Origin: Labilithrix sp.
Lineage (GTDB): Bacteria; Myxococcota_A; Polyangia; Polyangiales; Polyangiaceae
Assembly: GCA_019637105.1 (NCBI GenBank)
Contig: JAHBWF010000040.1
Coordinates: forward strand, 1 to 50,901
DNA length: 50,901 bases
Direction of reading: 5' to 3'
Notes under the pieces: generated by a model
Databases searched by the model: none
What the model saw: only the letters and a program-made list of their open reading frames with translations
What the model was told of the DNA's origin: nothing
Position numbers and translations under genes: made by a program
Shown: piece after piece, positions 27,981 through 47,958 of the stretch
How the letters are laid out: each line of letters opens with the position of its first letter
How positions within the stretch are numbered: position 1 is the stretch's first letter

Positions 27981-27983
27981 TCG

Positions 27984-30161: not shown

Positions 30162-30367
30162 ATGGGAAGTCTATCGGTCCGGAAGAGCCGACGGCAATGG
30201 AATGGCGAGGGTGTGGGTAGAAGGCGCATCCGGCAGCTCGACCGCACCGCGGAACCGCGTGACGGCGGAGCTCCGCCGCGGCTCGGCGGCCGCGGGCGCG
30301 CCGCGAGCCTCGTCACCGAGCGACACGGCCCGCCGGCCGCGGCTCGGACGAGCCGGCGGCGGCGCGG

Positions 30368-31432
30368 CTACTCGTCGAAGAGCTGCTTCTGCTTCGCGGA
30401 GGGCGGCGGCGTGACGAACGGGACCTTCAGGTGCTCGTAGGCGCGGCGGGTCGCGACCCGGCCGCGCGGGGTCCGGCCGAGGTAGCCCTGCTGCAGGAGG
30501 TAGGGCTCGTAGACGTCCTCGACGGTGTCGCGCGGCTCGCCGAGCGCGGCGGCGAGCGTCTCCACGCCGACCGGGCCGCCGTCGTAGTCCTCGATGATGA
30601 TCCGCAGGAGCCGCCGGTCCATCTCGTCGAAGCCGGCCGGATCGATGTCGAGGCGCTCGCACGCCCGCGCGACGATGGCGTCGTCGATGGCCCCCGAGCC
30701 GAGCACCTCGGCGAAGTCGCGGACGCGCCGGAGGAGGCGGTTGGCGACGCGCGGCGTCCCGCGCGAGCGCCGCGCGATGCCGAGCGCGGAGCCCGGCTGG
30801 ATCGCCACGCCGAGGAGCGCCGCGCTCCGCTCCACGATCTTCGCGAGGTCCTCCTCCGGGTAGAAGTCGAGGCGGATGATGTGCCCGAAGCGCGAGAAGA
30901 GCGGCGCCGTGAGGAGCCCCGTGCGCGTGGTCGCGCCGATGAGCGTGAACGGCTGCACCGGGATCTGGATCGACGAGGCGAAGGCGCCGTCGCCGGTCAT
31001 GACGTCGATGTGGAAGTCCTCCATCGCCGGATAGAGGCTCTCCTCGACCACGGGGTTCAGGCGGTGGATCTCGTCGATGAAGAGGATGTCGTTCTTCCCG
31101 AGCTTCGTGAGCAGGCCCGCGAGGGCGCCCTTGTGCTCGACGACGGGGCCGTTCGTCACGTGCAGCTCGACGCCCATCTCGTGCGCGAGGATCTGCGCGA
31201 GCGTCGTCTTGCCGAGGCCCGGCGGCCCGGAGAGCAAGAGGTGGTCGAGCGGCTCGCCGCGCCGGCGCGACGCCTCGACGAACACCCGGAGGTTCTCCTT
31301 GTGCTTCGTCTGTCCGATGTAGTCGTCGAGCGTGCGCGGCCGGAGCGAGCGCTCGAAGGGCGCGTCGTCGTGCTGCGCGCCGGGGTCGATCACCTCTCTC
31401 GGCGCGTTCTCGCGTGCCTCGCGCTTTGCCAT
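30368..31432 (-). CDS. ruvB: Holliday junction branch-migration helicase RuvB
   Basis: 354 residues from ATG 31432 ([12 protein letters not shown]). The core has [20 protein letters not shown], Walker [14 protein letters not shown], Walker [14 protein letters not shown], sensor-1 [12 protein letters not shown], the arginine finger in [14 protein letters not shown], sensor-2 [20 protein letters not shown], and the C-terminal winged helix [21 protein letters not shown]. RuvB hexamers drive migration of Holliday junctions with RuvA. Length and motifs are standard. ruvA and ruvC are not adjacent. No operator matching the lexA GTTCAG-N4-CTGAAC motif was noticed just before it, but I looked by eye only. 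A longer start at 31465 would add 11 residues before the conserved part. Confidence 0.96.
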
Positions 31433-31605
31433 CGCGACCGAGTTATCGGCGAGCCGGGCGCGCAAGTAAAGGCGCGCCGCGGCGCGGAGCTCCGCCGGGC
31501 GCGGTCGGCGGGATCGCGCGGCGACCGAGGGGCGCGATACGCGCTCCTCGGCCCGAGGGGGAGCACCTCCCTATCGTCGAGCGTCGCAGCCGGGGCCGCG
31601 CTACG

Positions 31606-32415
31606 ATGACGACGATGGACGAAGAGCACCCGGCGACCCGCTTGGAACCGTCCGTCGCGACCCTCCGCCGGCGGGCCAACTTCGCTATCGGCGCGCTCGC
31701 GATCACCATGCTCGTGCGTGGATGGGACTTCGTCGCGCTAGCCTGGTCGGTCGGCCTCGTCGAGGCGGTCCCGGACACGGGCGAAGGCGCAGGGCCGGAG
31801 CTCATGGCCAGCCTCGAGACGGCCGACAAGCTGGTCGACGCGGGCAACGTCGCGATCCCGATCACGTTCGTCGTCACCGCGATCCTCTTCTTACGGTGGG
31901 CGCACCGGCTCGTCGCGTTGACGCGCGACCTCGGCGCCGTGCTGATGTGGCGCCCGGCCCAGGCGGTGTGGGCGTTCTTCGTTCCCTTCGTCAGCTTCGT
32001 CCGCCCCTACCAGATCTTCTCGTCCGTACACGCGGCGCTCGATCCGGAGAAGGTCGCTGCACCCGCGCCACGCGTCGATCCGTCGGCGCAGGTCGATTAC
32101 CGGAGCGTGGCCTTCGTCGAGCCCTCGCGCGCGCGGAGCCTCCCGGCCGCGCTCATCGGCGTCTGGTGGGGTGCGTTCCTCGTGATGAGCCTCGGCGCGC
32201 GCCTGCTCGGCATGGACAAGACGCCGGCGGAGAGCGTCGCCGCCGTGGTCTCGGCGTACCACCGGGCGATGTTCGTGAGCTTCGTGGCGGTGGTGGCCGC
32301 CGCCCTCGCGACGAGCGTCGTGCGCGGGCTGACGGCCCGCGTCGAGGAGCGGTTCCGCCGCGTCCGCTGGTCGTCGCCCGAGGCGCTCGCCGCGCAGCGG
32401 ATCCGCCTCGGCTGA
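31606..32415 (+). CDS. DUF4328-type multi-span membrane protein
   Basis: 269 residues from ATG 31606 (MTTMDEEHPATRLEPS). It has about four to five membrane spans: FAIGALAITMLVRGWDFVALA, VAIPITFVVTAILFLRWAH, VWAFFVPFVSFVRPYQI (a short hydrophobic stretch), SLPAALIGVWWGAFLVMSLG and FVSFVAVVAAALATSVVRG. The sequence FLRWAHRLVALTRDLGAV followed by FFVPFVSFVRPYQIFSSVHAALDP matches the DUF4328 family seen in actinobacteria and myxobacteria. Function unknown. It diverges from ruvB over 173 bp and converges with the following gene. A frame-open extension upstream is less likely; it lacks the same codon pattern. Confidence 0.85.
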   Translation: MTTMDEEHPATRLEPSVATLRRRANFAIGALAITMLVRGWDFVALAWSVGLVEAVPDTGEGAGPELMASLETADKLVDAGNVAIPITFVVTAILFLRWAHRLVALTRDLGAVLMWRPAQAVWAFFVPFVSFVRPYQIFSSVHAALDPEKVAAPAPRVDPSAQVDYRSVAFVEPSRARSLPAALIGVWWGAFLVMSLGARLLGMDKTPAESVAAVVSAYHRAMFVSFVAVVAAALATSVVRGLTARVEERFRRVRWSSPEALAAQRIRLG

Positions 32416-34804: not shown

Positions 34805-35060
34805 TGATGAGAGCGCAGGGAGGTGTCGGGCGGTCGGAGCCGTCCGGACACGTCCCTGCGTCCGTCGGCTCGGCGTCCCTCGGTGGGCCAGCCTCGGCCG
34901 GAGTGAACCCCGAGCTCGACGAGCGAGCGTCGGATTCCGTCGAAGCGTCACCGCTGCGCGGCGGGTCGCTCCGCTCCTCCTGACCGCCGCACGCGGCGAG
35001 CCCCTGCGTGAGCGAAACCCCCGCCAGGACGACGGCAGAAAAGAGGGGTGAGCTTCGCAT
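34800..35060 (-). CDS. Small lipoprotein with acidic linker
   Basis: 86 residues. MRSSPLFSAVVLAGVSLTQG to LAACGG is a lipoprotein signal with a clear Cys. The rest is low complexity, with Asp, Ser, Pro and Glu (DPPRSGDASTESDARSSS) and two further Cys residues near the end (DAGTCPDGSDRPTPPCALIK). It has no recognisable domain. The stop overlaps the next gene. Many myxobacterial lipoproteins begin with such acidic linkers; here it is nearly the whole protein, so it may be a short surface peptide or a truncated gene. Function unknown. Confidence 0.65.
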   Translation of the reverse strand: MRSSPLFSAVVLAGVSLTQGLAACGGQEERSDPPRSGDASTESDARSSSSGFTPAEAGPPRDAEPTDAGTCPDGSDRPTPPCALIK

Positions 35061-35121
35061 CCGTCTTCCTTATCTCCGCCGTCTCGACGTCTTCGTCTCG
35101 AAGTCTACAGCGCGCCCTCGC

Positions 35122-35745
35122 TCACTGCGAGGCGCAGTTTTCGAAGCGGAACTGGGCGATCGCCTGGCACGACGAGCCCGCGCTCGTCGCGCTCGGGCAG
35201 GTGATCTCGCCCCAGACGCGTCCAGGGCCCACGCCTTGAATCGCCGAGGCGTAGCGGACGACGCAGCCGTCCTGCTGCTCGTAGGTCGTCCCACCTTCGC
35301 CGCGCGAGAACGCGCCGTCGATCCCGGACTGCTCACCCGACGGCCCCATCTTGCCCACGACGCGGAAGCGGCCTCCCGCCGCGCCCGCCAGGAAGATCGC
35401 CCCGTCGACGTCGAACGCGCCGGCGCCGTCCGACGCGACCGCGCAGGTCACGCGGAGCGTGTTCCCGTCGATCACCTCCCCATCCCGGACCGGCGTCGCC
35501 GGCGTGAAGCTGCCGATCGCGAAGAGGGGCCCCGCCTCGTCGCAGTCGTCGTCGGTGCCCGCCTCGAGGCGACCCTCGAAGATGACCTGCGAGGTGGCCG
35601 CGGGCGGATCGTCGGCCACCGATCCGTCGAGCGCGGTCGGCCCGCCCTCCCCCGAGTCCGACGAGCCGCCTCCCTTGCACGCGGTCCCCGCCGTCGCGCC
35701 CAGGACCAAGAGGCCGACCGCGACGCGCATGGGCGAAGAGTTCAT
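35122..35745 (-). CDS. Lipoprotein with single Cys-rich domain, function unknown
   Basis: 207 residues. ATG 35745 gives MNSSPMRVAVGLLVLGATAG to TACKGG, a lipoprotein signal. After a Gly/Ser linker the protein forms a small beta-rich domain (VIFEGRLEAGTDDDCDEAGP, LFAIGSFTPATPVRDGEVI, TLRVTCAVASDGAGAFDVDG, CVVRYASAIQGVGPGRVWGE) with paired Cys residues and ends in FRFENCASQ. It resembles no family that I can name. The AT-poor region 35746-35880 separates it from the next upstream gene. It is the third lipoprotein in a row here and may be under one promoter with its neighbours; no direct sign. Confidence 0.75.
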   Translation of the reverse strand: MNSSPMRVAVGLLVLGATAGTACKGGGSSDSGEGGPTALDGSVADDPPAATSQVIFEGRLEAGTDDDCDEAGPLFAIGSFTPATPVRDGEVIDGNTLRVTCAVASDGAGAFDVDGAIFLAGAAGGRFRVVGKMGPSGEQSGIDGAFSRGEGGTTYEQQDGCVVRYASAIQGVGPGRVWGEITCPSATSAGSSCQAIAQFRFENCASQ

Positions 35746-35880
35746 GGGAAAGAAGTAGAGCACATGCGGCTTCGTCGAACTGGGCACTTCGGCGACGTCG
35801 ACGAGCGTAAAAGGCTGTCTTTCGAAGTAGCGGCTGTCACCCGATTCTGGAGAGGACATGCGGCGCCGCCGTGCTCCGCC

Positions 35881-37317
35881 TCAGTCCGGGGCGATACCTT
35901 CGCCGAGCGAGTCGAGCCGGATGCGAACGGCCTCGGTGTTGGCGTAGCTGGACCAGGCGTGGAGGTACACGTGCTCGCACGTGATGCCGAGCGGCTCGGC
36001 GAAGTGGAGCTCCCCTTGTTGCGCCTCGGAGTCGTCGAGGATGGGCCACGACCTGCCGTCGGACAGGCGGATCAGACGAAAGCCGCTCTGCCCCCACCCC
36101 GTCGGGATCTCGGGGTAGCTCTGGATGGCCGCGTATCCGCAGCCGACCGCGTACCGGTGTCCCCATGCGGCGCGCGGCTCCGACCGAACTCGCCGTTTGG
36201 TGGCGTTCACGGTGGCCGGGTCGAGCGAGTACTTCGCCGTCCAGTGCTCGTAGGCATCGAAGACGAGCGAATCGAAGTTCGTTCGGCCACGTCCCTCCAG
36301 CCACACCATGTCGATCCCGTCCGTCGTGAAGCTCTCGACGCCGCGCGTGACGTCCCTTCCGTCATCGAGCAGCGTGAAGATGCCGCGCTCCTTCGTCCAG
36401 ACCTTCACCGCCGAGCGACGCGTCGTCGCTCCGACCCAGTACAGCGTGTCTTCCTGAAATCGGTACCTCGAATAGTAGAGATCCTTGTCTTCGCCCTTTG
36501 GCGAGATCGTGGCGACGAGCTCGCCGGTCGCGAACGAGTAAACCCGATCCGGAATCGCGGCCTCGATGAACAGCGAGCGGCCAACAGCATACTCGTGCGA
36601 GTAGAAACTGCTCGGCTGATGGCCTTTGGGAAAGTAGACGCGAGGCTTCAGGCCTTCAAAGGAGCCTCCGATCGCCCCTCCGATCCTGGTCTCCGTACCT
36701 GGCGAGTCGTAGACGCGCAGCAGGATGTGTCCAAAGCGAGCCACGTCGGAACCGCTCGTCCGACAACTTCCGGAATCGTAGAGCGCCGTATGCACCGGCC
36801 CGTCAGCCTCGGCGACCATCGTGAACCCGGCACCGGTCGGGAGCACACGATCGAGAAGCAGATACGCCTGGGCATCCTCGACGTGGACCGACCTGAGATA
36901 GACAGCACCCCCCGCTTGTCCGCTCGCCGCCCACGGCGTCGCCATCCGTTCGCAGACCATCCCGGGCGGCCCCGACGTTCCCGCGTCGGTCAGGTTCGCA
37001 GCGTCCGTGATCACGCTGCACGGCTCCCACTCGACCGGTGGCGGCAAGTACTTCCGCTCCGTCGCGTAGTAGAAGCCGCACGAGATGTCGTACTCGCTGA
37101 GGATCTTCCAGCCCTCGAGCGGACTCGGCGGCTCCTCCGGTTTCCACTCCGGCTGCGTGCTCGGACGCCCCCGATCGGCGCCCGCGTCGGCAGGCGCCGC
37201 GTCGGTCACCTGCCCGCCGCCGCCGTCGCTCCCGCACCCACCGGCGGACGCGAGAAGGACCGACACGGTGCCCGCGGACACCGCCGCCGCCGTCCGAGTC
37301 GCCGTCGAACGCTTCAC
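35881..37317 (-). CDS. Lipoprotein with beta-propeller-like repeats
   Basis: 478 residues from GTG 37317, which begins VKRSTATRTAAAVSAGTVSV and reaches the lipobox ASAGGCG; this fits a lipoprotein signal. A linker with Asp/Ala/Pro precedes about 400 residues containing repeated strands with Trp, Tyr and Arg (YYATERKYLPPPVEWEPC, GDKDLYY-type segments, WVGATTRRSAVKVWTKERG, GIDMVWLEGRGRTNF). The pattern suggests a propeller, with cysteines that may form disulfides (CGFYY, GSCRTSG, GCGYAA, ITCEHVY). No catalytic motif or named family is visible. A longer frame-open extension upstream covers a tandem repeat and is not used. Function unknown. Confidence 0.75.
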   Translation of the reverse strand: MKRSTATRTAAAVSAGTVSVLLASAGGCGSDGGGGQVTDAAPADAGADRGRPSTQPEWKPEEPPSPLEGWKILSEYDISCGFYYATERKYLPPPVEWEPCSVITDAANLTDAGTSGPPGMVCERMATPWAASGQAGGAVYLRSVHVEDAQAYLLLDRVLPTGAGFTMVAEADGPVHTALYDSGSCRTSGSDVARFGHILLRVYDSPGTETRIGGAIGGSFEGLKPRVYFPKGHQPSSFYSHEYAVGRSLFIEAAIPDRVYSFATGELVATISPKGEDKDLYYSRYRFQEDTLYWVGATTRRSAVKVWTKERGIFTLLDDGRDVTRGVESFTTDGIDMVWLEGRGRTNFDSLVFDAYEHWTAKYSLDPATVNATKRRVRSEPRAAWGHRYAVGCGYAAIQSYPEIPTGWGQSGFRLIRLSDGRSWPILDDSEAQQGELHFAEPLGITCEHVYLHAWSSYANTEAVRIRLDSLGEGIAPD

Positions 37318-37335
37318 GGCAGGTACCCACCCTGG

Positions 37336-37407
37336 CACGAGCGGCTCAATTCGCACGAGCGGCTCAATTCGCACGAGCAGCTCGATTCGCACGAGCGGCT
37401 CGCCCCG
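37336..37407 (-). repeat. 18-bp tandem repeat before the lipoprotein gene
   Basis: Copies 37336-37353 and 37354-37371 are identical, 37372-37389 differs at two positions, and 37390-37407 is a partial, diverged fourth copy. The unit is cacgagcggctcaattcg. It lies 19 nt upstream of the GTG of the lipoprotein gene, inside the likely 5' region, and could affect expression. It is too short and spacerless for a CRISPR. Confidence 0.85.
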
Positions 37408-37584
37408 TCGACGAGGCGCGGCGTGGTCGTCCTCCGCCGCTCGAGCGCTGGGCGGGAGACGGAGCCGGCGGTCGCCGAGGACGGTGTGCGCGTCGTACAC
37501 GACATCATGATCCCCCTCCGAACGAAGACGCCGCCGATCCTATACGCCCCTCGGAGAGGGGCGCGCGCTCGAAGCGGAAGCTCG

Positions 37585-40362
37585 TCAGGGCACGATCGTC
37601 ACGTCGAGCGTCGCGACGCCGCTCGCCCCGTCGAGGCCGTCCATGAAGAGGAAGTACTCCTTGTTGGCGGTGACGGGGAACGTGACGACGTCGTGGACGA
37701 CGGACGGACACGTCGAGAGGTTGGACTTCTTCAGCTCCGACGTCGGGTCGGCGCAGACGGTCCGCGCGTGGACGAGCCCGCCCACGAGGCCGTTGATCCG
37801 GGCGGTGAGGAGGCCGTTCGTGTTGGGGACGACACGGACGACGCCGTCACGCGCGTTGCCGCCGCACGCGCTCACGTAGCTGGGGTTCAGCTTGCTCGTG
37901 TCCAGGGTGAGGACCCCGCGGCGCGGCTGGTTCCCCGCCCCGGTCAGCGTCATCGGGACGCCGGGGCACGTGTCGGCGGCGGCGAGCGGCTCGAGCTTGC
38001 ACGTCGCCGAGCAGCCGTCTCCGGAGACCGTGTTGCCGTCGTCGCACTCCTCGGTCGCGCTCGGGACGAAGAAGCCGTCGCCGCAGCCCGAGGGCGTGAG
38101 CTCGAGGTCGAGCGTGAAGCGGCCGAAGTCGTCGGCGCTCGCCGTGTCGACGACGACCCAGAGCGTCTCGCCCGCGGCGATCGGCATGGCGAGCGACTCC
38201 GTCGCGCCCTTGGGAGCGTCGTTGCCGCACGCGAGCGGCGTCCCGCTCGTCGCGCATGGCTTGCGGAAGCCGAGGACCGCGTCGAACGCCGCGCTGTCGA
38301 CGCGCGCGCGGAGGACGCCGCCCTCGGGCGCGGTCACGGCGAAGTACGCCTCGCGGCCGGGCGCCTGACAGACGTGATTCGTCGTGGTCGTGAAATTGTG
38401 GGTCGCGTTGTAGCCGGTGGTGCCGCGCGCGAGCGTCGCGGCGTAGGCGCCGGCGACGCCCGTAGGCGTGAGGGTGACCGCCTCGGCGGCCGCGCACGTA
38501 CGCGGGCCGTGCGTCTCGAGCTGGCACGTGGACGAGCAGCCGTCGTCGTCGTCCGTCCCGCCGTCGTCGCACTGCTCGCCACCGTCGACGATGCCGTTGC
38601 CGCAGACCGCAGGCGAGACCTTCAGGTCGAGCTTGAAGGGACCGCTCGACGGGGTGCCGCTGCCGACCGCGCTGTCGACGAAGACGTAGTACGTCGTCCC
38701 GGCGACGACAGGCGCCGTGACACGCTTGGGGACGCTGCCGAGCCCGTCGAGGATGAACGGATTCGTCGACGCGTTGGCGTTGTAGCTGCAGGCGAGCCGG
38801 CTCGCGCTGTCGGCGCAGGTGCCGTGCACGTAGACGATCGAGTTGAACGGCCCCTTCACGTCCGCCGTGAGGATGCCGTCGATGTCCGGGGTGACCGCGT
38901 ACACCACGTCGGGCGCCGCGGCCGAGGCGGTGCCGCAGCCCGAGAAGCTGTTCGTCGCGCCCGCCGTCGAGTTCGCGATGGTCGCGGTCCGCGAGCCGTC
39001 CCCTTGCGTCACCAGCGTGAGCGGGTGTCCGGGGCAGCTCCCCGCCGCCGGACGCGCCTCGAGCTGACACGCCGCCGAGCAGCCGTCACCGTCGACGGTG
39101 TTGCCGTCGTCACACTGCTCGTCTCCGTCGAGCGTGCCGTTCCCGCACGCGCTCGGCGTCACCGCGACGTCCAGCGTGAAGGGGCCCGCGTAGTCGACGT
39201 TGCTCGCGCGATGTCCCTCGACGAACAGATAAAACCACTGGTTTGCGCTCACCGGGAACTCGAGATCGAGACCTCCGGGCTCCTCGCGCTGCGTGCAGCC
39301 GAGCTGATACGTGCTCGCCCCACAATCGGAGCGCGCGTGGAGGTTCGCCTTGGTGTAGCCCGCGTTGAGGTGCGCCTTCGCCGATCCGGCGACGTCCGAC
39401 TTGAGGGCGTAGACCATGTTCGGGCCTTGCCAGTAAAAGCACCCGATCGACTGCTGCGTGGCCGCGCCCTGCGTGGCGGTGTTGCCGGCGAAGCTCATCT
39501 TGCGCACCGCGCCCGGGGCGCCCGTGAGGACGAACGGCTGGCCCGGGCAGTTGTCCACGACGCCGCCGGCCTCGAGCGTGCACTCGCCGGAGCAGCCGTC
39601 CCCGTTCTGCGTATTCCCGTCGTCGCACTGCTCGGGGAGCTCGGCGACGCCGTTGCCGCAGACCGCGCTCGAGACCTCGACGTCGAGCGTGAACTCGCCG
39701 CCCGTCCCGCCGTAGCCGTCGACGACGAGGAACGTCGGCGCGCCGGCGAACACCGCCACCTCGAGCGTCGTCGTGCCTCCGGCCGTCGACTGGATCCCCT
39801 TGCAGCCGGTCTCGCTCTGCGCGTTGGCGCACGTGGTACGGGCGGAGACGATCGCCGGGAACTCCGCGGTGATCGTCACCGTGGCCTTGCCCGACGACGG
39901 CGGTGTGATCGCGTAGACGACGTCCCGACCGGATCCGCCCCCGCAGGCGCTGCCGAAGTGGTTGTAGGCTCCGTTCGTCGTACCGACCACCGAGCCGCGG
40001 AGGAGCTGCGGCTGACCGGGCTCCGGGGTGAGCGCGAGCGTCTCGCCCGGGCAGTAGTCCGCGGGAGAGGTCGACTCGATCTTGCAGGTCGAGCTGCAGC
40101 CGTCGTCGTCGACGAGGTTGCCGTCGTCGCACTCCTCGGCGCCCTCCTGCTTTCCGTTCCCGCACACGTTGGCAGGCTTGACCGAGCCGTCGCCGCTGTC
40201 GCTCTCCGTCCAAGCGTCGGCGGCGCCCGTGTCGGCGAGCCCGGCGTCCCCCCCGCCGTCGACGTCGTCGGAGAAGGTCGGATCGCTGTCGGCGGCGCAC
40301 GCCGCGAGCGCGAGTCCCGAGGTGACGAGGATCGACGTGAGGAAGCTGGAGAGACGGCTCAT
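37585..40362 (-). CDS. Lipoprotein with five DUF4215 Cys-rich modules and PPC-like domains (paralog 3)
   Basis: 925 residues from ATG 40362. MSRLSSFLTSILVTSGLALA to AACAAD is a lipoprotein signal, followed by an acidic linker. Five DUF4215 modules (form CGNG-x-EECDDGN-x-GDGCS-x-C) start at VCGNGKQEGAEECDDGN, VCGNGVAELPEQCDDGN, ACGNGTLDGDEQCDDGN, VCGNGIVDGGEQCDDGG and GCGDGFFVPSATEECDDGN. Each module is followed by about 140 residues of a beta domain resembling PPC-type domains, with a CPG start, an 'xCG...DVVYxVTP' strand and a 'YYVFVDxxxxxGxFTLDLxV' end. The last domain ends the chain in VTIVP. It shares its layout with the two upstream paralogs. Its start overlaps the stop of paralog 2 (ATGA). 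Likely surface-exposed; partner and ligand unknown. Confidence 0.9.
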   Translation of the reverse strand: MSRLSSFLTSILVTSGLALAACAADSDPTFSDDVDGGGDAGLADTGAADAWTESDSGDGSVKPANVCGNGKQEGAEECDDGNLVDDDGCSSTCKIESTSPADYCPGETLALTPEPGQPQLLRGSVVGTTNGAYNHFGSACGGGSGRDVVYAITPPSSGKATVTITAEFPAIVSARTTCANAQSETGCKGIQSTAGGTTTLEVAVFAGAPTFLVVDGYGGTGGEFTLDVEVSSAVCGNGVAELPEQCDDGNTQNGDGCSGECTLEAGGVVDNCPGQPFVLTGAPGAVRKMSFAGNTATQGAATQQSIGCFYWQGPNMVYALKSDVAGSAKAHLNAGYTKANLHARSDCGASTYQLGCTQREEPGGLDLEFPVSANQWFYLFVEGHRASNVDYAGPFTLDVAVTPSACGNGTLDGDEQCDDGNTVDGDGCSAACQLEARPAAGSCPGHPLTLVTQGDGSRTATIANSTAGATNSFSGCGTASAAAPDVVYAVTPDIDGILTADVKGPFNSIVYVHGTCADSASRLACSYNANASTNPFILDGLGSVPKRVTAPVVAGTTYYVFVDSAVGSGTPSSGPFKLDLKVSPAVCGNGIVDGGEQCDDGGTDDDDGCSSTCQLETHGPRTCAAAEAVTLTPTGVAGAYAATLARGTTGYNATHNFTTTTNHVCQAPGREAYFAVTAPEGGVLRARVDSAAFDAVLGFRKPCATSGTPLACGNDAPKGATESLAMPIAAGETLWVVVDTASADDFGRFTLDLELTPSGCGDGFFVPSATEECDDGNTVSGDGCSATCKLEPLAAADTCPGVPMTLTGAGNQPRRGVLTLDTSKLNPSYVSACGGNARDGVVRVVPNTNGLLTARINGLVGGLVHARTVCADPTSELKKSNLSTCPSVVHDVVTFPVTANKEYFLFMDGLDGASGVATLDVTIVP

Positions 40363-43115
40363 GGCGTCACCGTGAACTGGATCTTGGCAGCGCCCGAGGC
40401 GCCGTTGATGCCATCGACGTAGAGGTAGACGGGGACGTCCTTCTGGACGGCCGTGGTGAAGACACCGAGGTTCGACGTGCAGCTCGCGCGCGGGATCTCG
40501 GTGGTGACGTCCGCGCACTGGTTGCGGCCGTAGAGCAGGATGTTGAAGTTCGCGGTCGCGCGAGCCTCGAGGACGCCGGAGACGTCGGAGACGACCCGGA
40601 CGACGCCCTCCGGCCCGCTCCCGCCGCAGGCGCTCGACACGTTGCTCGCGAGGCCCGTCGTCTGCACGGTCGCGACTCCGCGCCGGGTCGCCGCGCCCGC
40701 TCCGGTGAGCGAGACGGTGTGACCGGGGCAGGCGGCGAGCGCGGGGAGCGTCTCGAGGGTGCACGTCGACGAACAACCGTCTCCGTTGACCGTGTTGCCG
40801 TCGTCGCACTCCTCGGCGCCGGCGACGAAGGTGTCTCCGCAGCCGGATGGAGCGATGTGGAGCTCGAGCGTGAAGCGCCCGCGCTGGACGGTGCCGGTGA
40901 CGTTCTGACCGTCGACGACGACGCGGTACGGCTGCCCCGCGTTGACGGGGACGATGACCTGCTGGCCGCCGTTCGAGACCGCGGCGTCGCAAGCGAGCTG
41001 CGGGCCAGAGCCGGAGCCGCAGCCGTTGCGGACGCCGACGGCCGAACGGAACGTGGCCTCCGTGATGGTCGCGGTGAGCACCCCGCTGATGGGGGGCGCC
41101 ACGTCGAACCAGGCGTCGGGGCCGTTGCTCGAACACGGCGAGAGCGTGTGCGTCGTCGTCGTGCCCGTCGTGGCGTGCGCGAGGTTGGTCGTACCGGAGA
41201 CGATCTTCGCGGAGTAGGTCCCGTCGGGATTCGCGACGTACGTGACCGGCGGGGCGGTCGAGCAAAGGTCGCGCGCCTTCTCGGTCTCGAGCTGGCACGT
41301 CGCCGAGCAGCCGTCGCCGTCGTCGGTCGCGCCGTCGTCGCAGGTCTCGCCGCCTTCGATCACGCCGTTGCCGCAAACCGAAGGCTTGATCTCGAGATCG
41401 AGGACGAACGGTCCCTCGACGCCGGTGGTGTTGCCGTCGACCACGAGGTAGTACGGCGTCTCCTTGTTGACGGCCGCGAAGAACGTCTTGGGACCGTTCC
41501 CCGTCGCGGCCTTGGAGCACGCGCCCTCGATGGGCGCGGTCGCCTCGGGAGTGACGCACGCGGCTCGGAGGGAGGCGAAGAGGTTCGCCTGCCCCCCACC
41601 GACCGTGACCTCGAGGTAGCCGTCGATGTCGCTCGTGAGCTGGTAGACGACGTCGCGCGCGGCGCTCTGGCAATGCGCGGCCGTGGTCGACGACCACTTG
41701 CTCGCCGGCAGCGTCCCCCCGGCCTCGGGGACCGTCGTGCCGTGCACGCGCAGCGCCCGCGGCCCGGGCGCGGGCGCCTCGAGGCGGATCGGCTTGCCGG
41801 GACAGGTGTACGACTCGGGGCTGCGCTCGACCTCGCAGCTCGCCGAGCAGCCGTCGCCGTCGACGACGTTGCCGTCGTCGCACTCCTCGCCTCCGTCCAC
41901 CAAGCCGTTGCCGCACGCCGCCGCCGTGAGGGTCGCGTTGAGGCTGTACAGCCCGGCGTTGGAGGTCGCGCTGCTGTCGACGAAGACGTAGACGGTCTGC
42001 TCGGCGAACACCGGCACGGTGCTCGAGAGCGGCGTCAGCGCGTCCGTCGCTCCTGCGCAGTCGAACTGGGAGTCGTTCGTCGTCCCCGCGCACTCGCGAC
42101 GGATGTGGAGCAGCGCGTTCGGGTAGTTCGCGAGGAGATCGAGCTTGAGCGCTCCCGTGACGGTCGGCGTGATGGCGTGGATCGCGTTCGGCCCGGCGCC
42201 CGTCGACGCGCACCCCGTCGCGTTCCCGCCGCCGTGCGCGAGCGTGCTCGTGTCCCCGGCGAAGCTCGCGGTGGTCGTGACGCGGTAAGGCATGCCAGGG
42301 CACGCCGACGCGGTCGACGTGTCCTCGAGCGCACACGTCGACGAGCAGCCGTCGCCGTCGACGGTGTTGCCGTCGTCGCACGTCTCGGGGTACTCGGCCT
42401 GTCCGTTCCCGCAGAACGCCGTCTGCACCTCGATGTCGAGGAGGAAGTCGCCCTTGCTCCCGCCGAAGCCGTCGACCATGAAGTACACGGGCGCGTTCGG
42501 GAAGATCGGGAACGCGATCTCCGTCGCGGCTTCGGGCGTCGAGGTGTTCTTGCACGCGAGCTCGGTCTTGATGTCCTCGCAGCCGCTCCGCGCCGAGAGC
42601 ACGGCCGCGAACGGCGAGACCAGGCGCGCGACCGCGCGGCCGACGGCGGGCGACGTCACCTTGTAGACCGCCTCGGGCCCCGAGCCGCCGCCGCACGTGG
42701 CGCCGTAGTGGTTGAAGAGGTCCGCGGTGCTCCCCGAGACGCTGGCCGTGTAGAGGGTGCCGCCGCCTTGCTGGGTGAGCGGGACCTCGACCGCGTTCGA
42801 GCAGAGGTCGCCGGGCCCGGCGGACTCGCGGCGGCACGTGGCGGAGCAGCCGTCGCCGTTCGACGGGTTGCCATCGTCGCACTCCTCGCCCTCCTCGAGC
42901 TTGCCGTTCCCGCAGCGGCTCCCCGGCGGACCGGTGTCGGGCGCGTCGGCGTCCGGCGTGGGATCGACGCTCCCGCCGTCGACGGACGCGTCGTCGGCCC
43001 CGGCGTCGGTGTCGAACGAGATGGGACCGTCGTTGGCCGCGCAGCCGACCGCGACGGGCGAGAGGATCAGCGCGGCGGCGAGCGCGCGCAACAGGAGCTT
43101 CTTCGGCAGGGACAT
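40359..43115 (-). CDS. Lipoprotein with five DUF4215 Cys-rich modules and PPC-like domains (paralog 2)
   Basis: 918 residues from ATG 43115. MSLPKKLLLRALAAALILSP to VAVGCAAN is a lipoprotein signal, then an Asp/Pro/Ser linker. The five modules start at RCGNGKLEEGEECDDGN, FCGNGQAEYPETCDDGN, ACGNGLVDGGEECDDGN, VCGNGVIEGGETCDDGA and GCGDTFVAGAEECDDGN, with PPC-like beta domains between them and a final one ending in QFTVTP. Aspartates inside the CDDGN...DGDGCS segment make calcium binding plausible but it is not proven. It is encoded 14 nt after the vWA gene and overlaps paralog 3 by 4 nt, so the row is one operon. Sequence divergence between the three paralogs is high outside the Cys modules, pointing to old duplications. 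Confidence 0.9.
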   Translation of the reverse strand: MSLPKKLLLRALAAALILSPVAVGCAANDGPISFDTDAGADDASVDGGSVDPTPDADAPDTGPPGSRCGNGKLEEGEECDDGNPSNGDGCSATCRRESAGPGDLCSNAVEVPLTQQGGGTLYTASVSGSTADLFNHYGATCGGGSGPEAVYKVTSPAVGRAVARLVSPFAAVLSARSGCEDIKTELACKNTSTPEAATEIAFPIFPNAPVYFMVDGFGGSKGDFLLDIEVQTAFCGNGQAEYPETCDDGNTVDGDGCSSTCALEDTSTASACPGMPYRVTTTASFAGDTSTLAHGGGNATGCASTGAGPNAIHAITPTVTGALKLDLLANYPNALLHIRRECAGTTNDSQFDCAGATDALTPLSSTVPVFAEQTVYVFVDSSATSNAGLYSLNATLTAAACGNGLVDGGEECDDGNVVDGDGCSASCEVERSPESYTCPGKPIRLEAPAPGPRALRVHGTTVPEAGGTLPASKWSSTTAAHCQSAARDVVYQLTSDIDGYLEVTVGGGQANLFASLRAACVTPEATAPIEGACSKAATGNGPKTFFAAVNKETPYYLVVDGNTTGVEGPFVLDLEIKPSVCGNGVIEGGETCDDGATDDGDGCSATCQLETEKARDLCSTAPPVTYVANPDGTYSAKIVSGTTNLAHATTGTTTTHTLSPCSSNGPDAWFDVAPPISGVLTATITEATFRSAVGVRNGCGSGSGPQLACDAAVSNGGQQVIVPVNAGQPYRVVVDGQNVTGTVQRGRFTLELHIAPSGCGDTFVAGAEECDDGNTVNGDGCSSTCTLETLPALAACPGHTVSLTGAGAATRRGVATVQTTGLASNVSSACGGSGPEGVVRVVSDVSGVLEARATANFNILLYGRNQCADVTTEIPRASCTSNLGVFTTAVQKDVPVYLYVDGINGASGAAKIQFTVTP

Positions 43116-43129
43116 CGCGCGTATCTCCG

Positions 43130-44263
43130 TCAGTTGGGGCGCCGGATGCAGCCGAGGACGACGTCGAGCTTCGGCTGGGCCTCGGCGGGCGCTCCGCGCA
43201 CCATCTCGCAGGAGGCCGGGCAGAGGATGACCCGCTCGGGCGTCTTCGGATCGTCGTAGTAGAAGCCGCCGGTGGTCGCGCCGCACGCCGCCTTGTTCGC
43301 GACGCGGCGGACGTTGACCGTCGGATCGTTGTCGCCCGGCGTGAAGTTGAGCTCGACGGAGTCGAGATCCAGCACGCCCTTGTCCGGCGGGGGTGTCGGC
43401 AGGACGTACTCGCAGCCGATGGCGCTCGTGCGGATCGTCTCGAGCGCGTCGAGCAGCGCCTGCTGGGCCGCGGCGCCCCCGCCGACGTTGAACGCCGTCG
43501 GCGCGCCGCCGCCCGCGGCCGCGACCTTGTTCAGGTTCGAGAACGTCGCGCCCTGCATGCCGACCGCGAAGGTGCGGACCGACGGCTCGTTGCCGCCGGG
43601 CTTCGCCCCGCTCGCCGCGATGCCCGCGACCGCGTCGATCCCACCGCCGCAGCCCGCCGGATCCCCGTCGGTGACGAGGATGACCGCGCCCGCGTGCGGC
43701 TCGCTCTCGGCGAGCCACGTACGCATCGCGAGGATCCCGCCCTCGAGCGCGGCGCCCATCGGGGTGCCGCCGCCCGGAGTCGTCCCCGCCAGGCGCTGCT
43801 GGATGGGGAGCACGTTGTCCGGCAAGGGACCGATGGGCACCGAGAGGTTGGCGTACGTGCTCGGCTGGCACTGATCGCCCGCGACGGGCGGGAAGAACTG
43901 GAGCCCGACCTGCATCCCGACGACCTCGGAGCGATCGACGAACGAGCGGATGGCGTTCGTCGCGCTCGCCCACATCTCGGTCGACATCGAGCCCGAGCGA
44001 TCGAGGAGCACGACCAGCGCGAGCGGCACGGCCTGTCCCGTCACGGCCTCGCTGACGCACTTGCCGCCATCCTCGGGCTCACCGGCGTCGAGCTCGGAGT
44101 CGAAGCCGGGCGCCGGCTCCTCCTTCGGCGGCTCCACGAAGGCGTCGCGCGAGCTCGAGGAGCACGCGACGGAGAAGATCCCCGCCGCGAGCAGCGCCGC
44201 TCCGACGATACCTACGAAGGAAGAGCGCCGCGCGCCGAGTCCGCTGTACATGTCGATCCTCAT
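43130..44263 (-). CDS. von Willebrand factor A-domain lipoprotein
   Basis: 377 residues from ATG 44263. The signal ends in IFSVACSSSS, a lipobox. After an acidic linker the vWA domain (about residues 78-285) has an intact metal-ion-dependent adhesion site: LVVLLDRSGSMSTEMW (Asp-x-Ser-x-Ser), TTPGGGTPMGAALEG (Thr) and VILVTDGDPAGCGGG (Asp). The C-terminal 90 residues have Cys pairs (GCEYVLPTPPP, KAACGATTGGF, CPASCEM, LGCIRRPN) that may form disulfides. vWA MIDAS domains bind a divalent metal and a partner's acidic residue. It is encoded between paralogs 1 and 2, its start overlapping the stop of paralog 1 by 4 nt, so it is probably co-made with them and may bind them. Confidence 0.93.
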   Translation of the reverse strand: MRIDMYSGLGARRSSFVGIVGAALLAAGIFSVACSSSSRDAFVEPPKEEPAPGFDSELDAGEPEDGGKCVSEAVTGQAVPLALVVLLDRSGSMSTEMWASATNAIRSFVDRSEVVGMQVGLQFFPPVAGDQCQPSTYANLSVPIGPLPDNVLPIQQRLAGTTPGGGTPMGAALEGGILAMRTWLAESEPHAGAVILVTDGDPAGCGGGIDAVAGIAASGAKPGGNEPSVRTFAVGMQGATFSNLNKVAAAGGGAPTAFNVGGGAAAQQALLDALETIRTSAIGCEYVLPTPPPDKGVLDLDSVELNFTPGDNDPTVNVRRVANKAACGATTGGFYYDDPKTPERVILCPASCEMVRGAPAEAQPKLDVVLGCIRRPN

Positions 44264-46995
44264 GGCGTCACCGTGACGGAGAGCGTGCCCGGGCCGGTCG
44301 CGCCGCCGAGGCCGTCGATGAAGAGGTAAGTAGGCACCCCGGCGAAGGCAGGGAACGTCAGCTCACGCTCGATCCTGTTCGGCGACGCCGGCGCGTAGGC
44401 GCTGCAGCCGAGCTCGCTCGAGCCGTCCGTACAGGACTCACGCGCGTAGAGGACGGTCGGCCAGATGCCCTTGAGCTCGACCCGCATCGTGCCGGTGATG
44501 TCGGACGTGACCGCGATGACGCCGTCTCGCGCGCTCCCGCCGCACGTGCCGGAGTAGTTGGCCGTGAGGTTCGCGGTCGACAGCGTCACCACCGCGCTCC
44601 GGACCTCGTTCCCCACGCCGGCGAGCGTCACGGCGTGGCCGGGACAGGTGTTCGCTCCTGCCAGGGGCTCGAGCTTGCACGCCGCGCTGCAGCCGTCGCC
44701 GCTCGTCGTGTTGCCGTCGTCGCACTCCTCGACGCCGCCGACCACGCCGTCGCCGCAGTCCTCCGCCTTGACCGTGACATCGAGGGTGAAAGCGCCGCGA
44801 TCGTTGTTGAGGTTCGGCGAGTCGATGATGATCCAGTACGGCGTGCCCTGCGTGACGGGGTAGGCGAAGTGTTCGCCGCCGGGGCCGGCGGTGCGGTTCG
44901 AGCAGACGAGGAAGGCACCGCCGGTGCTCGGAGGACACGCCGAGCGGAGGGCGGGCGTCACGTTGTAGGTCGCGTCGACGTTGACGGCGAGCACGCCGTC
45001 GATGGGCGGTACGACCTTGAAGAAGGCATCGCGTCCCACGGTGGCGCCACAAGGCGCGGCCAGCGAGCCGGCGCTCGTGAGGTTCCAGTTGCCGCCGGTC
45101 AGGCGGGCGCTGTACCGATCCGTGGCGGCGTCATGAACGAGCGTGATGTCCTCGGCCCCCGCGCAGTCGTTGCGCGAGGGCGTGCCGAGCGGCTCGATCA
45201 CGCAGGTGGCGCCGCAGGTGTCGCCGTCGACGTTGTTCCCGTCGTCGCACTCCTCGCCGCCCTCGATCCGGCCGTTGCCGCAGACCGATTTCTCGATTTC
45301 GACGTCGAGCGTGAAGGGCCCCTCGAAGTTCGTCGCAAACGTCGGCCCGTCGACGATGAGGTAGTACGTCTCGCCGGCGTTGACCGGTCCTTGGACCCTC
45401 TCCTCGCCGTTGCCACCGTTCGCGTTCCCGCACGAGATGCTTCCGGTGGTGGTCGTACTGTTCTGCGGAAGGCAATTCGACCGGAGATCGAGCGTCAGGT
45501 TGAACGCGCCCTTCGCGCGCGCGGTCAGGTAGCCGTTGAACGGCGGGACGAACTGGTAGATGGCGTCCTTGCGCGCCGTCGTGCCCGAAGCGCACGTCCG
45601 CGCCGCCGCGGTGAGCGGCGTCGTGCTCGCCGACGTACGGAACGTCAGCGGCCCGTCGGTCGCGTCGCCGGCGAAGGCGATCGTCGCTCCGGGACACGTG
45701 TCGATGCCGGCCGGCATCGGCTCGAGCGTGCAGGTCGCGCTGCAGCCGTCGCCGTCGGCCGTATTGTCGTCGTCGCACTCCTCCGGCGCCTCGAGCACGC
45801 CGTTGCCGCAGGTCGCAGGCGCGAGCGTCAGCTCCATCGAGTAGAGGCCCCCGTTGGGGAAGCTCGCCGTCGACTTGCTGTCGACGAAGAGGGTGTACGT
45901 CTGGTTGGCCGTGACCGGGAACGTGACGCGCACCGGCCCCGTCGGCTCCATCCGGCACTCGACCTCGGTGCCGCTGCTGAAGCACTCGCGGCGGACGTGG
46001 ATCGCCGCCTCGGGCCACGCCGCGTGGAGCACCGCCGTGAGCACGCCGTCCATCGTCGGGGTGATCGCGTACGCCTGGTCCTTTCCGCCGGCGATGCTCC
46101 CGCAGCCGAACGCGCCCATCGTGTTCGACAGGAGGCTCACGTCACCCGCGAAGGACACGGTGCGCGGCGCGGCCGGATCGCCGACGAAGGTGTAGGCCAT
46201 GCCGGGGCACGCGCCGACGCCCGGGTTTCCACCCTCCAACTGGCAGCTCGCCGAGCAGCCGTCGCCCGAGACCGTGTTGCCGTCCTCGCACTGCTCCGGG
46301 TACGTGGCGACGCCGTCGCCGCAGAACGCCGTGGAGATCGACACGTCGAGCTTGAACTCGCCGCTCTGGCCGGCGGCGCCGTCGACGATCACGTAGAAGC
46401 TGTCGCCGGGCGTGACGGGCAGCGCGATCTCCGTCGAGCCGCCGCCCGCCGGCATCGATTTGCAGCTCGTCTCGGTCGTCGGGCTCGTGCAGTCCTTGCG
46501 CACGTAGAGGAGCGCGGCCCACTGCGCGCTCAGCCGCACCACCGCGCGCCCCGCGACGTCGGCCTTCACGAAGTAGACGCGATCCTTGCCATTTCCGCCT
46601 CCGCACGTCGGGCTGTCGAGCGTCGCCTGCGCGGTCGACGTGTTGCCCGTCACGCTGCCGACGCGCGCGTCTCCGCTGGCGGTCATCGGGAGCGGCGTGC
46701 CGGGGCAGGCGCTCGCCGGCGCGGTCTCCTCCGTGCAGGTCGCGCTGCAGCCGTCGCCGCTCCGCGTGTTGCCGTCGTCGCACTCCTCGCCTGGATCTTG
46801 GTTGCCGTCCCCGCACGCGGGGCCCGCCGGCCCCGCCTCGGGCAGGACCAGACCGCCGTCGGCGCCGGCCTCGTCGGGCAGCAGCTCGAAGCCGACGACC
46901 TGGTCGGAAGCGCACGCGGCGAGCGTCACGCCCACGAGGGCGACGACGAGCGAGAGCTTCATGGAGAGCGTGCGAAGGGAAGAGGGTTGCTTCAT
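44260..46995 (-). CDS. Lipoprotein with five DUF4215 Cys-rich modules and PPC-like domains (paralog 1)
   Basis: 911 residues from ATG 46995 (MKQPSSLRTLSMKLSLVVAL), signal to TLAACASD with a lipobox; ATG 46962 is a possible later start, neither with a clear ribosome site. Modules start at ACGDGNQDPGEECDDGN, FCGDGVATYPEQCEDGN, TCGNGVLEAPEECDDDN, VCGNGRIEGGEECDDGN and DCGDGVVGGVEECDDGN, separated by PPC-like beta domains. The last domain ends TLSVTVTP. It is the first gene of the four-gene operon, with an AT-rich region upstream (47093-47150) that could hold the promoter. The stop overlaps the vWA gene start by 4 nt. Confidence 0.9.
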   Translation of the reverse strand: MKQPSSLRTLSMKLSLVVALVGVTLAACASDQVVGFELLPDEAGADGGLVLPEAGPAGPACGDGNQDPGEECDDGNTRSGDGCSATCTEETAPASACPGTPLPMTASGDARVGSVTGNTSTAQATLDSPTCGGGNGKDRVYFVKADVAGRAVVRLSAQWAALLYVRKDCTSPTTETSCKSMPAGGGSTEIALPVTPGDSFYVIVDGAAGQSGEFKLDVSISTAFCGDGVATYPEQCEDGNTVSGDGCSASCQLEGGNPGVGACPGMAYTFVGDPAAPRTVSFAGDVSLLSNTMGAFGCGSIAGGKDQAYAITPTMDGVLTAVLHAAWPEAAIHVRRECFSSGTEVECRMEPTGPVRVTFPVTANQTYTLFVDSKSTASFPNGGLYSMELTLAPATCGNGVLEAPEECDDDNTADGDGCSATCTLEPMPAGIDTCPGATIAFAGDATDGPLTFRTSASTTPLTAAARTCASGTTARKDAIYQFVPPFNGYLTARAKGAFNLTLDLRSNCLPQNSTTTTGSISCGNANGGNGEERVQGPVNAGETYYLIVDGPTFATNFEGPFTLDVEIEKSVCGNGRIEGGEECDDGNNVDGDTCGATCVIEPLGTPSRNDCAGAEDITLVHDAATDRYSARLTGGNWNLTSAGSLAAPCGATVGRDAFFKVVPPIDGVLAVNVDATYNVTPALRSACPPSTGGAFLVCSNRTAGPGGEHFAYPVTQGTPYWIIIDSPNLNNDRGAFTLDVTVKAEDCGDGVVGGVEECDDGNTTSGDGCSAACKLEPLAGANTCPGHAVTLAGVGNEVRSAVVTLSTANLTANYSGTCGGSARDGVIAVTSDITGTMRVELKGIWPTVLYARESCTDGSSELGCSAYAPASPNRIERELTFPAFAGVPTYLFIDGLGGATGPGTLSVTVTP

Positions 46996-47329
46996 CGTGT
47001 TTGGCCCGCAGCTCGACGGTGCCCCCCTGAAGGGGAGCTCGACACCGCCCTGCCTTCCTGTCGTCGCCCCGCCGACGCCCGGGTCACGGCGCGAAAATTT
47101 TGCGTGATCGATTTTGATAAAACCCTATCGACCCTAAAATTCCGCAGCGAGCGCGAGCTTGGCGATCGGTGCGCGGATCCCGCACCTCGGTCCAGACCTC
47201 CCCCGTACGTCCTGCGTCGTGACCGGCCAAGGACTTCGAAACGGTACGCGAGCACGCCGCAATCTCCGTCGAGCGGCCGGGGCGCGAGGTCAAATTGCTT
47301 CGACATTCCTACCATGGTAGGAATGTGCG
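46996..47329. promoter_or_regulatory. Divergent regulatory region between the lipoprotein operon and vapBC
   Basis: 334 nt between divergent starts. The AT-rich patch 47093-47150, unusual in this window, contains TTTT/AAAA runs and probably holds the promoter of the lipoprotein operon; I could not assign a clean -35/-10 pair on the minus strand. On the plus strand, TTGCTT (47295-47300), 17 nt and TAGGAA (47318-47323) form a weak promoter that would place +1 near the antitoxin ATG. Confidence 0.45.
47303..47326 (+). promoter_or_regulatory. Perfect 24-bp palindromic operator of the toxin-antitoxin pair
   Basis: The 24-bp run 47303-47326 equals its own reverse complement (central CCATGG), ends 3 nt before the antitoxin ATG (47330), and covers the likely -10 and the ribosome site AGGA (47319-47322). 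Ribbon-helix-helix antitoxins bind such palindromes to repress their own operon. Confidence 0.8.
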
Positions 47330-47557
47330 ATGAGCAAGCCGGCGGCGAAGCTGTCCGTGAGCGTCCCCAGCGACCTCGCGCGGTCGGTGCGCCGACGGGT
47401 GGGACCGCGCGGGCTCTCCGGCTTCGTCGCTCGGGCCCTGGTGCACGAGCTCGAGCGTGAGCAGCTCGGAGCGTTCCTCGAGGAGCTCGAGCGCGAGATC
47501 GGGCCCGTCCCCGACCGCGCCCTCACGCGAGCACGACGAGCATGGCGAGGACGCTGA
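47330..47557 (+). CDS. vapB: Ribbon-helix-helix antitoxin (VapB-type)
   Basis: 75 residues. LSVSVPSDLARSVRRRVGPR has the N-terminal strand and helix of ribbon-helix-helix repressors (KLSVSVP as the DNA-contact strand), and LSGFVARALVHELEREQLGA is the second helix. The acidic C-terminal half would wrap the toxin. It overlaps the toxin gene by 16 nt (ATG of the toxin at 47542), standard in type II toxin-antitoxin operons. The perfect palindrome just upstream is the expected autoregulatory site. Antitoxin function is inferred from the small size, fold and the partner. Confidence 0.82.
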   Translation: MSKPAAKLSVSVPSDLARSVRRRVGPRGLSGFVARALVHELEREQLGAFLEELEREIGPVPDRALTRARRAWRGR

Positions 47558-47958
47558 TCCTCGACTCCGAGGCGCTCAACGCGCTCGCGCGTGCCAAAGA
47601 GCGCCCGACTCTTGCCCTCCGAGCTCGCGCCATCCTGACCGTGGCCCACGAAGAACGCGCGCTCGTGCGCGTCCCTTCGCCGGTGCTCGCGGAGGTGTAC
47701 CGCGGCGGCGCTCGCGACGCGCCGATCGATCACGTCTTGAACGACCGCGGGATCATCGTCACGCCGCTGACCGCGTCCATCGCGCGGCGAGGGGGCGCGC
47801 TCCTCGCGCGAGCGAAGCTGTCCAGCGCGCACGCCGTCGACGCGTTCGTGGTGGCCACGGCGATCGAGCTCGGGCCGGCGATCGTGGCGACCCACGATCC
47901 CGATGACATGAAGAAGCTCTCGGCGGGCATCCGGGAAGTCCGCGTCGTGTCGATCTAA
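47542..47958 (+). CDS. vapC: PIN-domain ribonuclease toxin (VapC-type)
   Basis: 138 residues. PIN-domain hallmarks: MARTLILDSEALNALARA with the first Asp (and Ser/Glu), SPVLAEVYRGGARDAP with a conserved Glu, SSAHAVDAFVVATAIELG with Asp, and VATHDPDDMKKLS with the last Asp. These acidic residues coordinate magnesium or manganese in RNA-cleaving VapC toxins. It overlaps the antitoxin by 16 nt. The end of the gene is followed by a tandem duplication of its own 3' portion. Whether the toxin is active or degraded cannot be told; all the acidic residues are present. Confidence 0.88.
   Translation: MARTLILDSEALNALARAKERPTLALRARAILTVAHEERALVRVPSPVLAEVYRGGARDAPIDHVLNDRGIIVTPLTASIARRGGALLARAKLSSAHAVDAFVVATAIELGPAIVATHDPDDMKKLSAGIREVRVVSI

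What the first reader, a model, noticed from the sequence alone, without database searches (positions are those of the whole stretch)
37585..46995. Four-gene surface-lipoprotein operon: three five-module DUF4215 paralogs and a vWA-MIDAS protein
Seen: four lipoprotein genes with ATGA overlaps at 44260-44263 and 40359-40362 and a 14-nt gap at 43116-43129. Each of three paralogs (911, 918 and 925 aa) has exactly five CGNG-EECDDGN-DGDGCS-C modules alternating with PPC-like beta domains. The vWA protein has an intact MIDAS. Known: vWA MIDAS binds a divalent metal and a partner; DUF4215 modules have no firmly assigned role. Inferred: a dedicated multi-component surface system (adhesion, prey contact or matrix), possibly the most novel item here.
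Basis: partly seen in the sequence, partly recalled or inferred. Interest (0 to 1): 0.85.

Follow-up and report, generated by a model that had tools for sequence, protein, structure and literature searches.

The report
Four-gene surface lipoprotein rod-and-head operon
A bacterium of the myxobacterial group carries a four-gene set that appears to build an unusual surface attachment device: three long rods, each made of five distinct, probably calcium-stiffened links, plus one metal-dependent binding head; it gives a much-seen but unexplained protein domain a testable job.

Summary
Four minus-strand genes (A, V, B, C; 46995-37585) overlap or nearly touch as stated. A, B and C each have five DUF4215 modules, eight cysteines per module; V is a vWA protein with an intact MIDAS. 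A-V-B-C with 5/5/5 modules recurs in three other genomes of the genus (4 of 13, own included), named as Labilithrix/Polyangiaceae MAGs; two more keep remnants. Another genus has a five-module gene + V pair twice, again with 4-nt overlaps. V and rod trees agree. 75 modules from 15 proteins group by position 1-5 in the fewest possible changes (positions 3 and 4 weakly supported), so the five links look distinct and older than three genera. The beta domain between DUF4215 motifs folds like PPC/collagen-binding domains. The DUF4215 profile matches pappalysin inside M3, a small domain reported to hold two Ca2+. Best reading: an outer-membrane lipoprotein complex of calcium-stapled five-link rods with a MIDAS head, for contact or adhesion. 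Complex, surface exposure, calcium and ligand are inferred. vWA-DUF4215 pairing is not general (1 of 40 other vWA loci), and most genus members lack the operon. New variant of a known kind.

The parts
44260..46995 (-). gene A: 911 aa putative lipoprotein, five DUF4215+PPC-like modules
43130..44263 (-). gene V: 377 aa vWA protein with MIDAS, eight conserved Cys besides the putative lipid-site Cys
40359..43115 (-). gene B: 918 aa, five DUF4215+PPC-like modules
37585..40362 (-). gene C: 925 aa, five DUF4215+PPC-like modules
44260..44263 (-). ATGA overlap, stop of A / start of V
   Evidence: 4-nt overlap in all 4 genus operons and both G121 pairs
43116..43129 (-). 14-nt gap between V and B
   Evidence: 14 nt in G004 and G010, 1-nt overlap in G012
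40359..40362 (-). ATGA overlap, stop of B / start of C
43988..44002 (-). MIDAS DxSxS of V (D88-S92); T167 at 43763-43765, D199 at 43667-43669
46735..46821 (-). DUF4215 module A1
46240..46356 (-). DUF4215 module A2
45730..45813 (-). DUF4215 module A3
45202..45291 (-). DUF4215 module A4
44674..44757 (-). DUF4215 module A5
42834..42920 (-). DUF4215 module B1
42333..42416 (-). DUF4215 module B2
41835..41915 (-). DUF4215 module B3
41292..41381 (-). DUF4215 module B4
40761..40841 (-). DUF4215 module B5
40081..40170 (-). DUF4215 module C1
39580..39663 (-). DUF4215 module C2
39064..39153 (-). DUF4215 module C3
38521..38607 (-). DUF4215 module C4
37996..38085 (-). DUF4215 module C5
45721..46335 (-). 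stretch of A (module 2 plus the next DUF4215) that was modelled; PPC-like beta-sandwich between the two DUF4215 motifs

Best explanation
The four genes encode one outer-membrane lipoprotein complex for contact or adhesion. A, B and C are rods: a lipid-anchored N-terminus, a variable spacer, then five non-interchangeable links, each a disulfide-stapled acidic DUF4215 linker followed by a PPC-like beta-sandwich. The DUF4215 linkers bind Ca2+ and stiffen the joints between beta-sandwiches. V, whose start overlaps the stop of A, is a MIDAS vWA head that binds a metal and a ligand or partner. V and A form the core pair; B and C, further copies, make the rod set heteromeric. Shown by computation: operon structure, module count, Cys pattern, position identity, agreement of V and rod trees, MIDAS residues, beta-domain fold (predicted), sequence match of DUF4215 to the pappalysin M3 domain. 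Inferred: lipidation and surface exposure, Ca2+ binding, physical association of V with A/B/C, rod shape, ligand and biological role.
Against: vWA and DUF4215 do not generally travel together: DUF4215 lay in 1 of 40 other vWA stretches read, and a vWA neighbour was found at 3 of 13 DUF4215+beta loci outside the genus (one of the three, G053, is not in the V clade; one of the ten without is a 5-kb contig). The operon is dispensable: 4 of 13 genus genomes intact, 2 reduced, 7 without a match at E 1e-30. The DUF4215 parts of the model had low confidence (block means 33-53), so their fold rests on sequence only. No PDB chain matched V by sequence at E 0.01 and no complex was modelled. Lipoboxes of V and B are unusual here. 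Absence of terminator-like sites inside the block is weak evidence: no promoter-like site was found either.
Confidence: 0.45

Rival explanations
1. Four co-expressed surface lipoproteins that act separately: A, B and C each bind different polymers through PPC-like domains, V is an unrelated vWA lipoprotein. No complex.
For: Top fold matches of the beta-domain are polymer (collagen)-binding domains. vWA proteins of the wider family occur in 35 of 39 genomes, and 39 of 40 such stretches read hold no DUF4215.
Against: Conserved 4-nt overlap of A with V in two genera, same tree shape for V and rods, and a private V clade.
Confidence: 0.22
2. Substrate-docking scaffold: the rods hold secreted hydrolases or polymer substrate near the cell, V being the docking or regulatory part.
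For: The beta-domain fold resembles domains of secreted proteases and collagenases; the pappalysin match is to a protease scaffold.
Against: None of the four proteins has a hydrolase match. No partner gene is conserved next to the block: of 11 neighbouring window ORFs tested, some match beside the operon in G004 (48098, 35881 and 32549 ORFs), none in the stretches held of G010 and G012 (the G012 contig ends about 1.7 kb upstream of A).
Confidence: 0.15
3. Gliding-motility focal adhesin of CglB type.
For: CglB is a vWA surface protein that mediates substrate binding in gliding (PMC13104615, passages); V has a weak local match to the CglB model, E 0.0053.
Against: 15.8 bits against a cut-off of 200; no stretch of the genome reaches the CglB cut-off (best 76.4 bits). 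The patchy presence (4 of 13 genus genomes) is not what I would expect of a core motility part; Glt genes were not searched.
Confidence: 0.07
4. Polymorphic self-recognition receptor, like TraA.
For: TraA has a lectin-like PA14 domain and a cysteine-rich repeat region proposed as a rigid stalk (PMC3325183, passages). The first beta-domain of A is the least conserved (55% to G010, 41% to G012).
Against: No module stands out as hypervariable: beta-domain identities are 55-73% to G010 and 41-67% to G012. No PA14 match in Pfam and no MYXO-CTERM match in NCBIfam. Within-species variation was not available.
Confidence: 0.04

Closest known systems
DUF4215 (PF13948) / TIGR02232 myxo_disulf_rpt proteins
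   Same: Same cysteine-rich acidic repeat, above both curated cut-offs; other DUF4215 genes lie on five further contigs of this genome.
   Different: On four of those contigs the hits are DUF4215 without the PPC-like domain, by my own HMMs; one (C325) has one or two DUF4215-beta units. Here each DUF4215 alternates with a PPC-like domain, five times, with position identity.
CglB and CglD, vWA lipoproteins of Myxococcus xanthus gliding
   Same: vWA domain on a (predicted) outer-membrane lipoprotein (PMC4488436 and PMC13104615, passages).
   Different: V is far below the CglB model cut-off and is coupled to DUF4215 rod genes. V was not compared with CglD.
PilY1 pilus-tip proteins with a vWA domain
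   Same: vWA with MIDAS thought to serve adherence; some myxobacterial PilY1 are cysteine-rich (PMC9109919, PMC13190605, passages).
   Different: No PilY1 beta-propeller match in V, A, B or C; V is a separate 377-aa protein.
TraA outer-membrane exchange receptor
   Same: Binding domain plus a cysteine-rich repeat region proposed as a rigid stalk.
   Different: Different repeat family (TIGR04201), PA14 head, MYXO-CTERM; one rod protein, not three plus a vWA.
Pappalysin-1/-2 M3 domain
   Same: Sequence match of the DUF4215 profile; small domain with two reported Ca2+, between large beta-sandwich domains.
   Different: One copy in a metalloprotease; not an adhesin rod.
Clostridial collagenase ColG/ColH collagen-binding domains (PPC-type fold)
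   Different: 9-12% identity; binding residues not compared; no claim of collagen binding.

Membership tests
DUF4215 (PF13948) / TIGR02232 | score above curated cut-off | tested here: met
   104.9, 101.7, 111.8 bits against 27; 195, 195.3, 190 against 20.8
vWA (PF00092) | score above gathering cut-off | tested here: met
   32.3 against 23.8 bits
vWA (PF00092) | complete MIDAS DxSxS...T...D | tested here: met
   D88, S90, S92, T167, D199 in 7 of 7 V proteins found beside DUF4215 genes of this type; binding of metal not testable
PPC / collagen-binding domain | beta-sandwich fold | tested here: met
PPC / collagen-binding domain | Pfam PPC model hit | tested here: not met
   no PPC model listed at E up to 0.1; best galactose-binding-like hit 21.7 bits against cut-off 27; hence called PPC-like only
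CglB (NF033757) | score above equivalog cut-off 200 | tested here: not met
   15.8 bits
TraA-type receptor | PA14 domain and MYXO-CTERM | tested here: not met
   neither listed for A, B, C or V at E up to 0.1
Bacterial lipoprotein | signal peptide with lipobox [LVI][ASTVI][GAS]C (pattern recalled) | tested here: inconclusive
   A and C fit; V and B deviate at -3 in this genome; the putative lipid-site Cys of V aligns in the six clade members (the G053 row was a part sequence and says nothing here)
Calcium-binding module | bound Ca2+ | not testable with these tools
   inferred from pappalysin M3
Surface complex | physical association and surface exposure | not testable with these tools
   no complex model could be run

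The most novel reading that the evidence does not exclude
A heteromeric, integrin-like bacterial adhesin in which the ligand-binding MIDAS domain and the long legs are separate lipoproteins: one vWA head shared by three different calcium-stiffened rods, whose five links each have their own conserved identity. DUF4215 would then be a calcium-locking hinge domain shared with animal pappalysins.
Probability: 0.25. Interest if true: 0.8.

Novelty: new variant of a known kind. Interest (0 to 1): 0.55.

Why it matters
DUF4215 repeats are numerous in this genome (41 hits; none in 14 control genomes), and I found no role for them in the papers searched. The pappalysin M3 link gives a direct test: does a DUF4215-PPC module bind Ca2+ and become rigid? 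The conserved V-rod pairing gives a concrete candidate complex for how little-studied Polyangiales touch surfaces, kin or prey, and the fixed five-position architecture argues for a structure of defined length rather than a loose repeat.

Tried and rejected
CglB equivalence: rejected by score. A general vWA-DUF4215 linkage: rejected (1 of 40 stretches; the 40 were taken from the top of the non-operon vWA matches, whose list is itself truncated; flanks were about 6 kb or less and some end at contig edges). Literature: 'DUF4215' in 0 papers; TIGR02232, PF13948 and related names in 2 papers, neither on this system (passages seen). No paper on a DUF4215-vWA operon was found; most subscription papers are not held and preprints hardly. 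The CglB paper in Sci Adv was not held and is known here only through passages of other papers. One search listed 14 papers with CglD and 'gliding'; I saw passages of two of them. What I recall of later CglD work (integrin-like adhesin) is not used as evidence. Searches (Labilithrix; PPC in myxobacteria) were listings only.

The order search scored at most 4 candidates per genome and the phylum search 2, so copies can have been missed; the phylum sample is thin for near relatives. Prediction of full-length A and of complexes was not obtained. A PDB sequence search with V gave nothing at E 0.01. One search read the G003 and G007 remnants in the wrong frame and is superseded. In one search the counts at the cysteines, at E of column 12, at D of columns 15-16 and at E of column 32 are wholly or partly forced by the search pattern; the unforced evidence is D25 and E34 of alignment A2, invariant in 60 of 60 rows. 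The truncated G082_g2 was dropped from the module tree (15 of 16 proteins used). In one search the G053 V row was a part sequence, so its agreement at the first two cysteines is not evidence.

Full report
WHAT IS THERE. A, B and C each have five DUF4215 stretches by Pfam and five by TIGR02232. V is a vWA domain protein. A long antisense frame, 35008-40422 on the plus strand, is taken as a by-product of GC-rich coding DNA: against the G004 orthologues, 195, 65, 214 and 218 of the differences in A, V, B and C fall in third codon positions of the minus-strand frames, against 50/38, 14/8, 60/35 and 83/43 in first/second positions. dN/dS against G004 is 0.147 (A), 0.115 (V), 0.142 (B) and 0.179 (C) by NG86; against G010 and G012 it is 0.40-0.65, where saturation of dS in GC-rich DNA is likely (my reading).

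CONSERVATION. Among 39 genomes searched, the window's own included, three others, G004, G010 and G012, carry the complete order A-V-B-C. The 12 rod proteins of the four operons have five modules each, with exactly eight cysteines in each of 60 modules. A-V and B-C overlap by 4 nt in 4 of 4; between V and B there are 14, 14 and 14 nt, and a 1-nt overlap in G012 (starts chosen by me as the ATG that fits). Of 11 neighbouring window ORFs tested, matches beside the operon occur in G004 and none in the stretches held of G010 and G012 (the G012 contig ends about 1.7 kb upstream of A), so the block itself is the conserved unit.

LOSS. Of the 13 genus genomes, two hold remnants. In G003 a 254-aa protein corresponds to the start of A through the second DUF4215 and then stops. 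In G007 a 221-aa protein has the A N-terminus (60% over 42 aa) and the fifth beta-domain of C (77% over 134 aa), beside genes matching window genes at 26604-31609. The G007 gene looks like the product of recombination between DUF4215 modules that removed V, B and most of A and C; that reading is inference, and since these are metagenome-type assemblies an assembly fault is not excluded. The other seven had no match at E 1e-30; one of them is only 72% complete.

THE CORE PAIR. In another genus of the family, G121 has two separate five-module genes, each followed by a V gene with a 4-nt overlap. G082 has two such genes overlapping like B and C, the second cut by the contig end, with no V on its 5-kb contig. 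In the order (184 genomes, at most 4 candidates scored each) full-length matches occur in G000, G004, G010, G012, G121 and G082; 17 of 184 genomes have any match at E 1e-40. In the phylum sample (377 genomes, 2 candidates scored each) 3 had a match, of which only the window's own was full length.

TREES. A, B and C are each one clade (100/100) over the four genomes, each in the order G012, G010, (G000, G004). The G121 proteins group together apart from the rest; the order of G082, A, B and C is unresolved. Among 49 V-type proteins, the six beside five-module genes form one clade (100/100, branch 0.48) with the same order: G121 pair, then G012, G010, (G000, G004). A seventh, G053, beside a four-module gene, is a long branch elsewhere. 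Modules: 75 modules of 15 proteins fall into the five position groups with 4 changes, the minimum; shuffles average 46.2 and none of 200 was as low. Support is strong for positions 1, 2 and 5 and weak for 3 (54/23) and 4 (61/90). The five-link arrangement thus most likely predates the three genera, and the links are not interchangeable. In the window alone, 14 of 15 modules have their best match in another rod at the same position; C3 matches A5 best.

V. MIDAS residues D88, S90, S92, T167 and D199 are present in 7 of 7; eight cysteines beside the putative lipid-site one are present in the six clade members. The broader family is large (35 of 39 genomes). Of 40 other vWA stretches read, one (L087) has DUF4215 genes nearby. 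Of 13 DUF4215+beta loci outside the genus, three (two in G121, one in G053) have a V neighbour.

MECHANISM. Rods: anchor, variable N-terminal part (21-51% identical to G010/G012), then five links with DUF4215 at 67-96% and beta-domains at 41-73%. Apart from the first beta-domain of A, which is the least conserved (55% and 41%), no module stands out, which argues against a hypervariable recognition module. V would be the metal-dependent head. That V binds A is inferred from the overlap and the matching trees. The scan found no sigma-70-type promoter-like site, and no terminator-like site inside the block (one on the plus strand at 47089-47105, outside it; 2.9 expected by chance), which says little.

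VERDICT. Observation confirmed; interpretation partly supported. New variant of a known kind (bacterial surface lipoprotein/vWA systems), with a specific and testable reading for DUF4215.

Noticed in passing
window 47330-47557 + and 47542-47958 +: Small gene pair upstream of A on the opposite strand, overlapping by 16 nt; the second is a PIN-domain protein (E 1.8e-7), the first has no Pfam match. Probably a VapBC-like toxin-antitoxin pair.
   Followed up: partly
window 35881-37353 -: Putative lipoprotein gene downstream of C with no Pfam or NCBIfam match, 79% identical over 474 aa in G004 next to the operon, not seen in the stretches held of G010 and G012.
   Followed up: partly
L063 8120-8785: One-module chimera of the A N-terminus and the fifth module of C in G007, possibly a natural recombination product between DUF4215 modules.
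   Followed up: yes
L062 7145-7909: Remnant of A in G003 that ends right after the second DUF4215.
   Followed up: partly
L139 1606-6154: In G053 a vWA gene outside the V clade precedes a four-module beta-DUF4215 gene with a 22-nt gap; possibly an independent pairing.
   Followed up: partly
L087 5985-12101 -: In G034 a vWA gene has two neighbouring genes with one DUF4215 match each, on the same strand.
   Followed up: no
window 26604-30161 -: Two histidine-kinase-type genes, one with receiver, GAF and PAS domains, 87% and 92% identical in G007 beside the chimera.
   Followed up: no
G000 contigs C246, C271, C113, C283: Other DUF4215 genes of this genome have DUF4215 repeats without a PPC-like domain by my HMMs.
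   Followed up: no
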